Source: an uncultured Dokdonella sp.
GTDB lineage: Bacteria; Pseudomonadota; Gammaproteobacteria; Xanthomonadales; Rhodanobacteraceae
DNA: 64,000 nucleotides
Reading direction: 5' to 3'
Assembly: GCA_934526015.1 (NCBI GenBank)
Contig: CAKSZY010000011.1
Location: forward strand, 1 to 64,000
This document shows positions 16,505 to 24,672 of the stretch, piece after piece (the stretch's first letter is position 1; every line of letters starts with the position of its first letter). The position numbers and the translations under genes are program-made. A model generated the notes under the pieces. The model was not told the origin of the DNA. It worked only from the letters and a program-made list of their open reading frames with translations, and ran no database searches.

Positions 16505-17815
16505 TCATGCCGCCGGCTGCGGCAGGATGACGGTGACGACGAGGCCGCCGCCCTCGCGGTTGGCCAGGGTCACGCGACCGCCATGCGCCTCGCTGATTTC
16601 GCGGGCCAGCGCGAGACCGAGGCCGGTGCCGCTGCGCTTGGTGGAATAGAACGGCAGCAGCGCCTGGGCGAGCACGGTCTCGCTCATGCCGGGACCGCGA
16701 TCGCGAACCTCGATGCGCAGTTCCCGCCCGCGCTCGGCGACGGCCAGTTCGATCGCCTCGGCCGGGCCGCCGGCCTCGTGGGCGTTCTTCACCAGATTGA
16801 TCAGCATCTGCTCGACCTGGGCCCGGTCGAACCGGCCCGCCGTCGCCGGCAGCGCACCGGCCACGCGGAAACTCGAATGGCGGGCCAGCGCGTCGAGGAA
16901 GGCCGGCCACTCGACCGCGGCCGGTCGCGGCAGCGGCAGGCGCGCGAAGCCGGCATAGCCGTGGATGAAATCGCCGAGGTGGCGCGCACGCCCCTCGATC
17001 GTGTCGAACACGGTGCCGAGGCGATCGAGGTCGCCGCGGCGGGCCAGTTCGCGCCCGGAATGTGCCAGCGAGCGGATCGGCGCCAGCGAGTTGTTGAGCT
17101 CGTGGCTGATGACCCGGATCACCTTCTTCCAGGTGGCCACTTCCTGGCGCGACAGTTCGCGGGTCAGGCGCTTGACCAGGAACATGCGGTGGGCGCGTCC
17201 CTGCAGCTTGAACGTGCGCCGGGAGAGGTGGAAGGATTCGTCTTCTTCGTCGATGCGCACGCCGAACAGCACGTCGCCGCCGGTTTCCAGGGCGGCGGCG
17301 AATTCCGGCGCCGCCTGCGCGACGATCCGCGCGAAGCTCTCGCCGTTCAGCGCGCGACCGCCGTTGAGCAGCGCGCGCGCGGCCAGGTTGGCGTACACGA
17401 CATGGCCGCCCGGCTCGACCAGCACGAGTGCATCCGGGGTGTTCTGCACGACCGAGTCGAGCAGCAGTTCGCGCTGGAACAGGCCCTGGCGCTGCTCGCG
17501 CAGCACGCGGCCGAGTTCGTTGTGCGCCTCGACCAGGTCGCCGAGTTCGTCGCGGCGGCGATTGGCGATCGAGAAGCTGAAGTCGCCGTCGCGGAACGCG
17601 CTGACGCTGCCGGCCAGCGCGCGCATGAGTTCGCCGAGTGCGCGTGCCCGCCGGCGCGCCAGCCAGAGTGCGGGAACGATCATCGCAGCCAGTGCGGCGA
17701 TGGCCGCATGCGGCATCGGCAGCCACCACGACGCCAGCGCGACGGCGCCGATGGCCAGCGCCGCGCACAGCAGCAGCAGGGCGGCGAGCTTGCCTTCGAG
17801 CGAGAACAGTCGCAT
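16505..17815 (-). CDS. Membrane-bound sensor histidine kinase (NtrY-like)
   Basis: 436 residues. Two N-terminal membrane helices (about 9-31 and 35-53) with almost no periplasmic loop are followed by a HAMP-like linker, a PAS-like domain (about 113-215), the dimerisation helix VIRVISHELNNSLAPIRSL (phosphorylated His about 238) and an ATPase domain. The ATPase has N box INLVKNAHEAGG, G1 DRGPGM and G2 GTGLGLALA. The lack of an external domain suggests it senses a membrane or internal signal. It follows the sigma-54 response regulator by 84 bp and is the last gene of the export operon. Confidence 0.92.
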   Translation of the reverse strand: MRLFSLEGKLAALLLLCAALAIGAVALASWWLPMPHAAIAALAAMIVPALWLARRRARALGELMRALAGSVSAFRDGDFSFSIANRRRDELGDLVEAHNELGRVLREQRQGLFQRELLLDSVVQNTPDALVLVEPGGHVVYANLAARALLNGGRALNGESFARIVAQAAPEFAAALETGGDVLFGVRIDEEDESFHLSRRTFKLQGRAHRMFLVKRLTRELSRQEVATWKKVIRVISHELNNSLAPIRSLAHSGRELARRGDLDRLGTVFDTIEGRARHLGDFIHGYAGFARLPLPRPAAVEWPAFLDALARHSSFRVAGALPATAGRFDRAQVEQMLINLVKNAHEAGGPAEAIELAVAERGRELRIEVRDRGPGMSETVLAQALLPFYSTKRSGTGLGLALAREISEAHGGRVTLANREGGGLVVTVILPQPAA

Positions 17816-17899
17816 GCGGATGGGCAGGGGCCGTGGATTTCGGGCGGGCGTTGCCGATTCTAGTCGGCCCGGCGGGAGTCGCGGGTGGTGCGCAGGCCG

Positions 17900-19249
17900 T
17901 CAGTCGCCAATCTCGATGCCGAGCTTCTGCAGCCGGCGGTAGAGCGCCTGGCGCGACAGGCCGAGTTCGGCGGCGGCCTGGCTGATGACGCCGCGCGCGC
18001 GGCGGATCGCACCCTCGATCGTTTCGCGGTCGGGTTCGGCATCCGCCGGCAGCCGTCCGGCGCTCGCGCGCGTGCCGGCCAGGCCGAGGTCGCGCGCGCC
18101 GACCACGCCGTTGCTGCAGAGCAGGCTGGCACGCTCGATCGCGTTCTTCAGTTCGCGCACGTTGCCGGGCCAGGCATGCGCGGCGAGCGCCGCGCGCGCA
18201 CCGGCATCGAGGGTGGCGCGTCCCTGCAGGAAATGCTCGGCGAGCGGCAGGATGTCGTCGCTGCGTTCGGACAGCGGGGGCAGGCGCAACTCGATGACGT
18301 TGAGACGGTAATAGAGATCCTCGCGGAAACGGCCATCGCGGATCGCGGCGGCGAGGTCGGCATTGGTCGCGCTGATCACGCGCACGTCGGCCTGGCGCGT
18401 GCGGCTCGAACCGAGGCGCTCGAACTGGCCGGTCTCGAGCACGCGCAACAGTTTCATCTGCCCGGCCAGCGGCAGGTTGCCGATCTCGTCGAGGAACAGG
18501 GTGCCGCCGTCGGCGACCTCGAAGCGACCCTCGCGCGCGCGGTTCGGCGCACCGGTGTACGCGCCGGGCTCGGCGCCGAACAGTTCGGCTTCGATCAGCT
18601 CCGAGGGCAGGGCACCGCAGTTGACGGTGACGAACGCCGCCTTCGCCCGCGACGAGTTGGCCTGGACGATTTCGGCAACGCGTTCCTTGCCGGCGCCGTT
18701 CGGGCCGGTGATCAGCACCGGCACGTCGGCGCGGGCCACTTTGCACGCCAGTTCGACCACGCGCTCGGTGGCTGCGGAAGCGAACACGATGCCGCGCAGG
18801 TCGTGATCGGCATCGAGCTGGCGCCGGCGCCGGCGACGCTCCTCGCGGAAGCGGGCGACCTCGCGCGTGGCCTCCGACAGTTCCAGCAGGTTTTCGACCG
18901 TGGCGAGCAGCTTGTGGTCGTCCCACGGCTTGCCGAGGTAGTCGCCGGCGCCGGCCTTGACCAGTTCCACGGCGGTCTCGAGTCGCGTCCACGCCGTCAG
19001 CAGGATGATCGGCAGGTCGGCGTGTTCGGCGCGGATCGCACGGTACAGGGCCACGCCTTCCTCACCCGAGGTGGTGTCGGCGCTGAAGTTCATGTCCTGC
19101 ACGACGAGGTCGACGCGCTCGCGGGCGAGCACCTCGAGCCCTTCCTGCGGCGTGGTCGCGGTCAGCGTGCGGATGTCGCGCAGGCCGAACAGCAGGTCGA
19201 GGGCCGTGCCGACCGCAGGGTTGTCGTCGATCACCAGTACGCTGCGCAT
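17900..19249 (-). CDS. Sigma-54-dependent response regulator (NtrC family)
   Basis: 449 residues. The receiver has acidic pair DD at 8-9, phospho-acceptor Asp at about 52 and Lys at about 107. The AAA+ domain has Walker A GPNGAGKE (about 182-189), the sigma-54 contact loop GAYTGA (229-234) and Walker B LFLDEIG. A Fis-type HTH ends the protein (ISQAAAELGLSRQALYRRLQ). GAYTGA in place of GAFTGA is a common tolerated variant. The start MRSVLVIDDN is ten codons inside the longest frame. It lies downstream of the ABC export genes and upstream of its kinase, and is the obvious activator of the sigma-54 promoter before the operon. Confidence 0.93.
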   Translation of the reverse strand: MRSVLVIDDNPAVGTALDLLFGLRDIRTLTATTPQEGLEVLARERVDLVVQDMNFSADTTSGEEGVALYRAIRAEHADLPIILLTAWTRLETAVELVKAGAGDYLGKPWDDHKLLATVENLLELSEATREVARFREERRRRRRQLDADHDLRGIVFASAATERVVELACKVARADVPVLITGPNGAGKERVAEIVQANSSRAKAAFVTVNCGALPSELIEAELFGAEPGAYTGAPNRAREGRFEVADGGTLFLDEIGNLPLAGQMKLLRVLETGQFERLGSSRTRQADVRVISATNADLAAAIRDGRFREDLYYRLNVIELRLPPLSERSDDILPLAEHFLQGRATLDAGARAALAAHAWPGNVRELKNAIERASLLCSNGVVGARDLGLAGTRASAGRLPADAEPDRETIEGAIRRARGVISQAAAELGLSRQALYRRLQKLGIEIGD

Positions 19250-24614: not shown

Positions 24615-24655
24615 GCCTTCCTCCTGCGCCGGACGGCGGCGCACGCAGTGGCTTC

Positions 24656-24672
24656 AGCAACGAGCGTGCCAA
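24656..24672 (-). promoter_or_regulatory. Sigma-54 (-24/-12) promoter of the ABC export operon
   Basis: Minus strand TTGGCACGCTCGTTGCT matches the consensus YTGGCACG-N4-TTGCW at every defined position, with GG and GC in correct register. The predicted start near 24645 gives a leader of about 30 nt before the adaptor ATG with its AGGAGG. The operon encodes a sigma-54 activator, which makes the site credible. Confidence 0.88.

What the first reader, a model, noticed from the sequence alone, without database searches (positions are those of the whole stretch)
16505..24672. Self-contained sigma-54 circuit: ABC exporter operon encoding its own activator and kinase
A full-consensus -24/-12 element (TTGGCACG-N4-TTGCT) stands 42 bp before an adaptor-ATPase-permease-permease operon. 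The next two genes on the same strand are an NtrC-type regulator with GAYTGA and a histidine kinase with almost no periplasmic loop. If the element drives the operon, the circuit is a positive feedback loop in which export of a membrane-active or envelope compound is induced by its own sensor. The two distinct MacB/FtsX-like permeases suggest a heterodimeric exporter whose substrate is unknown.
Basis: partly seen in the sequence, partly recalled or inferred. Interest (0 to 1): 0.72.

Follow-up and report, generated by a model that had tools for sequence, protein, structure and literature searches.

The report
Peptide exporter regulon with own switch
A bacterial pump operon appears to be switched on by a control pair encoded at its own end, and in related bacteria the same switch sequence also precedes extra pump parts, protein-cutting enzymes and small secreted proteins, which suggests an undescribed system for handling or secreting peptides.

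Summary
In a Dokdonella-like window the only full -24/-12 element in 64 kb precedes an adaptor-ATPase-permease-permease-regulator-kinase operon. Both are conserved: 65 of 72 relatives have the element; 63 of 68 element-bearing loci have at least two half-sites nearby, 0.17 expected. The element is present in 52 of 54 loci with the regulator adjacent, 3 of 7 without it in view.

"Self-contained" fails for the family. The combined element occurs at 108 sites in 85 of 233 genomes; the reversed pattern hits 2. 53 sites precede the adaptor, 16 a permease pair, 19 a small secreted protein ending WQ[ST][LF][LV]PG[AV][IM]K, 6 TolC, 8 peptidase- or hydrolase-like genes; 6 are unexplained. In Xanthomonadaceae the second target was a secreted repeat protein (10 of 10 genomes), in Oxalobacteraceae a TldD-type peptidase (7 of 20 sites). 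Some relatives carry five to seven permease pairs per ATPase.

Best reading: an RpoN-dependent, autoregulated MacB-type exporter at the hub of a peptide-handling regulon. Substrate, signal and RpoN dependence are inferred. I found no paper on it.

The parts
24719..24757 (-). cluster of TGTCCG/CGGACA half-sites, candidate enhancer (UAS) for the operon's own NtrC-type regulator
   Evidence: TGTCCG-N10-CGGACA at 24747-24726 unique in the window; half-site clusters at the same place in relatives
24656..24671 (-). -24/-12 (RpoN-type) promoter element TGGCACGCTCGTTGCT; transcription start expected near 24645 (inferred)
   Evidence: conserved in 65 of 72 relatives
23343..24614 (-). periplasmic adaptor (HlyD/RND_mfp type), ATG start at 24614
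22331..23080 (-). ABC ATPase of MacB/LolD/DarD type
20964..22268 (-). permease 1 (PM1), MacB_PCD + FtsX, four TM helices, matches N half of TIGR03434
19577..20785 (-). permease 2 (PM2), MacB_PCD + FtsX, four TM helices, matches C half of TIGR03434
17900..19279 (-). NtrC-type response regulator (REC-AAA-Fis), D62, GAYTGA; start may be the ATG at 19249
16505..17815 (-). histidine kinase, two TM helices with about five residues between, HAMP, HATPase

Best explanation
The operon encodes a MacB/LolCDE-type ABC exporter (adaptor, ATPase, two-permease unit) together with its own sigma-54 control system. Proposed mechanism: the loop-less membrane kinase senses a state of the membrane or of the transporter and phosphorylates the NtrC-type regulator (inferred). 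The regulator binds helically phased TGTCCG half-sites upstream of the -24 element and, through GAYTGA, opens the RpoN promoter complex (sites and their conservation shown, binding inferred). The operon, regulator and kinase included, is transcribed, which gives positive feedback (inferred from gene order and gaps). In relatives the same regulator is taken to drive further targets: extra permease pairs, TolC, peptidases and a lineage-specific small secreted protein (shared element shown, regulation inferred). The exporter ejects a periplasmic peptide-like cargo through TolC (inferred). The window's species probably has the small-protein gene outside the window, because its two closest relatives do.
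For: Element in 65 of 72 relatives; half-sites 3.35 against 0.067 per 120 bp, at least two in 63 of 68 loci, helical phasing; element and adjacent regulator go together; recognition helix LGLSRQALYRR in 17 of 18 relatives printed. Genome-wide element in 85 of 233 genomes against 2 of 233 for the reversed pattern; 108 of 108 sites classified: 53 adaptor, 16 permease pair, 19 small protein, 6 TolC, 8 peptidase- or hydrolase-like, 6 unexplained. Independent check: of 15 small-protein genes found by their C-terminus and not by the strict promoter pattern, 13 have a relaxed element with half-sites. Other families. Precedent: MacAB-TolC exports a Sec-secreted peptide from the periplasm (PMC5985334, passages).
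Against: No expression, binding or transport data. The window's genome is not held, so its own regulon is unknown; no small-protein gene and no TolC is among the six operon genes, and no small gene of the WQSLVPG type is in the window. L043 and L044 have the regulator but only 9 of 12 element positions; L040 has no exact half-site. The strict element is found in 85 of 233 genomes although 210 have the regulator, and 4 genomes with a site (G120, G132, G144, G155) show no regulator. L216 and L217 lack the element. Six of 108 sites are unexplained. No test was made of whether peptidases are more frequent than chance among targets. The small proteins of Dokdonella and of Xanthomonadaceae show no evident likeness to each other, and none was found in the Rhodanobacter/Dyella group. 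The Oxalobacteraceae pattern is looser (3 of 116 reversed hits).
Confidence: 0.6

Rival explanations
1. Defence module: kinase and exporter sense and remove foreign antimicrobial peptides, as Bce modules do in Gram-positive bacteria, and the co-regulated peptidases destroy them; the small secreted proteins are decoys or accessory factors, not cargo. (This shares the regulation with the best explanation and differs in the origin of the cargo.)
For: Kinase without sensor loop next to a MacB-superfamily transporter, as described for BceAB and its two-component system (PMC5985334, passages); peptidases among targets.
Against: Bce has a 10-TM permease (PMC5985334) and, from recall, an OmpR-type regulator; here two 4-TM permeases and an NtrC-type regulator. 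It does not by itself explain a conserved single-copy small secreted protein as second target.
Confidence: 0.3
2. Envelope-stress circuit of ZraP type: the small secreted proteins are periplasmic chaperones or feedback regulators of the kinase, and the exporter serves envelope maintenance with a non-peptide cargo such as a lipid or lipoprotein.
For: ZraSR is a sigma-54 pair with autoregulation (PMC12316311, section 19; that ZraP is a small periplasmic partner is recalled); ATPase and permeases are also close to LolCDE.
Against: Predicted models of the small proteins show no confident fold (mean pLDDT 57 and 53; shallow alignments); the peptidases and multiple permease pairs are not explained.
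Confidence: 0.15
3. The element is a chance match and the operon is driven by a sigma-70 promoter elsewhere.
For: No transcript data exist; TGGCAYNNNNNNTGCW as such is common by chance.
Against: Same place in 65 of 72 relatives, half-site enrichment, joint loss with the regulator.
Confidence: 0.03

Closest known systems
MacAB-TolC (and PvdRT-OpmQ) tripartite pumps
   Same: Adaptor, MacB-fold permease, related ATPase, TolC inside or beside the operon in relatives
   Different: ATPase and permease are separate proteins, two different permeases, up to seven pairs in relatives; far below the MacB equivalog cut-off
LolCDE
   Same: Separate ATPase with two different 4-TM permeases
   Different: Below the LolD and LolC/E cut-offs; has an adaptor and a sigma-54 control pair
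Darobactin exporter DarBCD
   Same: DarD is the best NCBIfam match of the ATPase (262 bits)
   Different: Below cut-off 375; adaptor far below DarC (43 against 450)
BceAB-BceRS modules
   Same: MacB-superfamily transporter with a loop-less kinase
   Different: Two 4-TM permeases with an adaptor, NtrC-type regulator, sigma-54-type promoter
ZraSR and other autoregulated NtrC-type sigma-54 pairs
   Same: Sigma-54 activator with kinase and self-control (PMC12316311)
   Different: Encoded at the end of an ABC exporter operon; different targets and sites
SmaCDEF of Stenotrophomonas maltophilia
   Same: ABC-type efflux operon of four genes in Xanthomonadaceae (passages)
   Different: One published primer matches exactly in two Stenotrophomonas-group genomes at loci that hold only an ATPase of 38 percent identity; the partner primer was not found there, so the assignment rests on one primer

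Membership tests
sigma-54 (RpoN) promoter | GG and GC dinucleotides at -24/-12 in TGGCAC-N5-TTGC | tested here: met
sigma-54 (RpoN) promoter | transcription lost without RpoN | not testable with these tools
   experiment needed
NtrC-type enhancer-binding regulator | receiver, AAA+ with GAFTGA-type loop, Fis-type HTH | tested here: met
   GAYTGA variant
NtrC-type enhancer-binding regulator | upstream enhancer half-sites on one helical face | tested here: met
   binding itself not tested
MacB equivalog (PRK10535) | fused ATPase-permease above 966 bits | tested here: not met
   ATPase 220, PM1 71, PM2 55 bits; separate genes
LolCDE | LolD at or above 307.75 and LolC/E at or above 362.45 bits | tested here: not met
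   220 and 37 bits
Darobactin exporter DarBCD | DarD at or above 375 bits, DarC at or above 450 bits | tested here: not met
   262 and 43 bits
ADOP duplicated permease (TIGR03434) | one duplicated permease above 622.3 bits | tested here: not met
   PM1 156 bits to the N half, PM2 199 bits to the C half; two separate genes
Tripartite efflux pump | adaptor plus TolC-type outer membrane protein | tested here: inconclusive
   adaptor in the window (RND_mfp 115.9 bits, cut-off 94.9); TolC in the operon or under the same element only in relatives
Bce module | kinase without extracellular sensor domain beside a MacB-superfamily transporter | tested here: met
Bce module | 10-TM BceB permease | tested here: not met
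   two permeases with four TM helices each
SmaCDEF | same locus as the published smaCDEF genes | tested here: not met
   forward primer maps to another locus; reverse primer not found there
XAC0231 family (second target in Xanthomonadaceae) | NF052303 at or above 140 bits | tested here: inconclusive
   two of the 10 proteins were scanned: L235 153.3 bits passes, L237 105.1 bits does not

The most novel reading that the evidence does not exclude
This is an undescribed RpoN-controlled peptide secretion system with interchangeable parts. One adaptor and one ATPase serve several permease pairs (up to seven in one operon, plus satellites elsewhere), each pair choosing a cargo. The co-regulated small secreted proteins (WQSLVPGAIK type in Dokdonella and Rudaea, VQVRPS-repeat XAC0231 type in Xanthomonadaceae) are cargo or peptide precursors, and TldD-, DUF885- and M19-type peptidases mature or clear the peptides.
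Probability: 0.33. Interest if true: 0.82.

Novelty: new variant of a known kind. Interest (0 to 1): 0.62.

Why it matters
It ties a conserved two-component system (regulator ortholog in 210 of 233 genomes of the Dokdonella immobilis family) for which I found no paper to a concrete enhancer sequence and a target list, so its function becomes directly testable. It gives candidate cargoes for a MacB-type exporter with a permease pair and a regulatory context for small secreted proteins that have no known function, among them members of NCBIfam's XAC0231 family. Arrays of old, distinct permease pairs around one ATPase suggest that specificity in this transporter class can be changed by adding permease modules.

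Tried and rejected
SmaCDEF as the same operon: rejected on one exact primer match (the partner primer was not found); a two-mismatch match in G018 lay at genes unrelated to the operon. A role for the divergent MscS gene (24861-25757): no MscS homolog appears in the gene orders of the 80 loci. Structure prediction of the two small proteins gave low confidence (mean pLDDT 57 and 53), so no fold search was made. The intergenic heptad repeats were considered as part of the mechanism and left out: in the six relatives examined (L001, L002, L003, L010, L014, L036) the gaps hold no CTAGGG[AG] heptads and at most one reverse-strand unit. Paper searches for this operon, enhancer or small protein gave nothing on it (open-licence PubMed Central only).

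Dropped before counts: 8 of 80 loci (L030, L035, L038, L068 with too little upstream sequence; L033, L049, L060, L061 without an adaptor match). The 68 loci are the window and the 67 relatives with at least 9 of 12 near the adaptor. In one search, 11 of 72 loci were cut too near the operon to show a regulator and are outside the 54 and 7. For Xanthomonadaceae I fetched 20 of 115 distinct sites: both sites of 10 of the 27 genomes with two. For Oxalobacteraceae I fetched 20 of 28 distinct sites. Twelve of the 16 satellite pairs were seen only in about 2.7 kb behind the promoter. Counts are of related genomes, not of independent events.
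Full report
What is in the window. The minus strand from 24614 to 16505 carries six genes in a row: adaptor, ABC ATPase, permease 1 (PM1), permease 2 (PM2), NtrC-type regulator and histidine kinase. The named hits of PM1 and of the regulator are mostly Dokdonella. TGGCACGCTCGTTGCT at 24671-24656 is the only full -24/-12 match in 64 kb, against a mean of 0.01 in shuffles. Upstream lie three TGTCCG and one CGGACA half-sites (24757-24719). The kinase has two hydrophobic helices with about five residues between them and intact H, N and G boxes; the regulator has D62 and GAYTGA; both permeases have four hydrophobic helices. 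PM1 and PM2 match the N and C halves of TIGR03434.

Is it conserved? One scan of genome contigs with a PM1 profile gave 80 loci (the cap; 156 stretches encoded a relative) with record titles from Dokdonella, Rudaea, Rhodanobacter, Lysobacter, Stenotrophomonas, Massilia, Rheinheimera and others. The order adaptor-ATPase-PM1-PM2-regulator-kinase is complete in 48 of 80; several others are cut by contig ends. Upstream of the adaptor, 65 of 72 examinable loci score 10 or more of 12 for the element. The seven misses are L034, L039, L041, L042, L043, L044 and L048. In 68 loci with an element (67 relatives and the window), the 120 bp before it hold 3.35 half-sites on average against 0.067 in random windows of the same loci; 63 of 68 have two or more (0.17 expected). 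Same-orientation sites peak at 10-12 bp spacing and inverted ones at 6, 15-18 and 26-27 bp, which is helical phasing. L040 has none.

Does the regulator go with the promoter? Where the regulator is adjacent, 52 of 54 loci have the element; where more than 2.5 kb downstream shows no regulator, 3 of 7 have it (Fisher p 0.0009, not corrected for relatedness). The four without both are Rheinheimera, Paraglaciecola, Aestuariibacter and Lacimicrobium (L039, L041, L042, L048). Of these I searched two genomes: Aestuariibacter has no regulator closer than about 40 percent over most of its length, Rheinheimera has one at 54 percent elsewhere. Two of the three exceptions (L024, L029) are Rudaea, whose genomes keep a 74-75 percent regulator elsewhere; L015 was not searched. 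The helix LGLSRQALYRR is kept in 17 of 18 relatives printed; L050 has M for L.

Is the circuit self-contained? Not in the family. A genome-wide search for TGTCCG-N0-14-CGGACA-N30-60-TGGCAY-N6-TGC found sites in 85 of 233 genomes of the family of Dokdonella immobilis; the pattern read backwards hit 2 of 233. I classified all 108 distinct sites (from loci). 53 precede the adaptor. 16 precede a PM1-PM2 pair with no adaptor or ATPase gene between; in the four seen in 10 kb or more no adaptor or close ATPase is near (L112, L121, L122, L123; L122 has a 28 percent ATPase on the other strand), the other twelve were seen in about 2.7 kb. 19 precede a small gene (18 by script; L117 moved by eye because it reads WQT). 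The other 20 are: TolC 6 (two behind a PCMT gene), Peptidase_M19 2 (L182 by likeness to L181), S33-type hydrolase 2, DUF885 1, DUF922 1, Amidohydro_1 1, a CarboxypepD_reg match below cut-off 1, and 6 unexplained (L126, L131, L143, L179, L185, L196). Whether peptidases exceed chance was not tested.

The small secreted protein. It has about 105-150 residues, a leader-like N-terminus, a variable middle and an almost invariant C-terminus (RP-x-YRWQSLVPGAIK in the 21 homologs aligned of 84 found). It has no Pfam or NCBIfam family above cut-off, and where a source names a homolog the name is hypothetical protein. A DNA pattern for its C-terminus occurs once each in 33 of 233 genomes and in none for the reversed control. 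Eighteen of the 33 had been found through the promoter. Of the other 15, 13 also have 10 or more of 12 positions and two or more half-sites upstream; L216 and L217 do not. The relatives closest to the window by the regulator, G138 (91 percent) and G023 (89 percent), carry it with such a promoter (L208, L207). It is not in the window. In Rudaea sp. it lies about 3 kb beyond PM2 (L029).

Other families. Among 198 genomes of the Stenotrophomonas family, 88 have the strict element (reversed control 1). In 10 of the 27 genomes with two sites I fetched both: one was the exporter and the other a secreted-looking protein with TL-x-x-V[QE]VRPS repeats in 10 of 10. A relative of this protein occurs once in 39 of 198 genomes; 25 of the 39 have a strict site 148-186 bp before the match, 14 do not. 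L235 passes NCBIfam's XAC0231 family, L237 does not. In Oxalobacteraceae a looser pattern occurs in 22 of 116 genomes (reversed control 3). Of 20 sites fetched of 28, 12 precede the adaptor, 7 a TldD/PmbA-type protein with a leader (Pfam run on two, the rest by likeness) and 1 a small secreted-looking gene upstream of the ATPase.

Arrays. In some Rhodanobacter, Dyella and Pseudoxanthomonas genomes one adaptor and one ATPase are followed by several PM1-PM2 pairs and then by regulator and kinase: Rhodanobacter glycinis 7, R. denitrificans MAG 7, Pseudoxanthomonas winnipegensis 6, Dyella acidiphila 5, Rhodanobacter sp. OK091 5. Several pair types are older than the genera: one PM1 type is 93, 80 and 75 percent identical between arrays, while PM1 copies within an array are at most 64 percent alike except one pair of 73 percent in Pseudoxanthomonas. 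PM1 and PM2 alternate in the arrays; L002 and L003 have an extra PM2. This supports a two-permease unit that can be multiplied on one ATPase.

How it most likely works. Shown by sequence: the genes, the element, the half-site cluster, their conservation, joint absence of element and regulator, and shared elements at other targets in relatives. Inferred: phosphorelay, DNA binding, RpoN dependence, transcription through to the regulator (positive feedback), peptide cargo and use of TolC. The peptide theme rests on the peptidases and small secreted proteins among the targets and on the precedent that MacAB-TolC exports a Sec-secreted peptide from the periplasm (PMC5985334, passages). A defence role, as in Bce modules, fits the peptidases equally well.

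What is known. A 2025 computational survey says that it gives the first evidence for sigma-54 control of FtsX-type ABC systems and reports COG1136 enriched in Opitutia (PMC12316311, passages and section 19 parts 1-2 of 3). I found no description of this operon, enhancer, regulon or small proteins in searches of an open-licence library, which lacks most subscription papers; three further searches concerned heptad repeats, SmaCDEF and Bce modules. The parts are of known kinds; the combination is a new variant.

Noticed in passing
window 19448-19577, 20803-20839, 23235-23343: Tandem heptads (CTAGGGG/CTAGGGA, G-rich on the coding strand in two of three gaps) fill three intergenic gaps of the operon. 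They resemble the quadruplex-forming heptameric repeats described in Xanthomonas and Nostoc (PMC4692102, passages); six relatives lack such arrays in the same gaps.
   Followed up: partly
L052+L102, L105+L106, L057+L107, L068, L103: Five to seven PM1-PM2 permease pairs in tandem with a single adaptor and ATPase, pair types older than the genera.
   Followed up: partly
L086, L088: A distant exporter operon (adaptor 23-25 percent, ATPase 50 percent identity) with the same UAS plus -24/-12 element, divergent from a regulator of 41-42 percent identity: probably a sister circuit with the same site.
   Followed up: no
L126: The element lies before an ORF that looks like a transposase running into a piece of a kinase gene 79 percent identical to the window's: probably an insertion in the kinase gene (by eye, no family search).
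   Followed up: no
G304:C44 62126-63457 and 118598-119929: Two equally scoring copies of the regulator in opposite orientation about 55 kb apart, the only genome of the 210 with two.
   Followed up: no
L006, L007, L018, L021, L023, L028; L009: Extra genes between PM2 and the regulator: DUF885-type (Pfam run on L007 and L018, the others by likeness) and, in L009, a beta-lactamase-fold hydrolase.
   Followed up: partly
L047, L064, L065, L066, L067, L080: A TolC-type outer membrane protein gene sits between the ATPase and PM1.
   Followed up: yes
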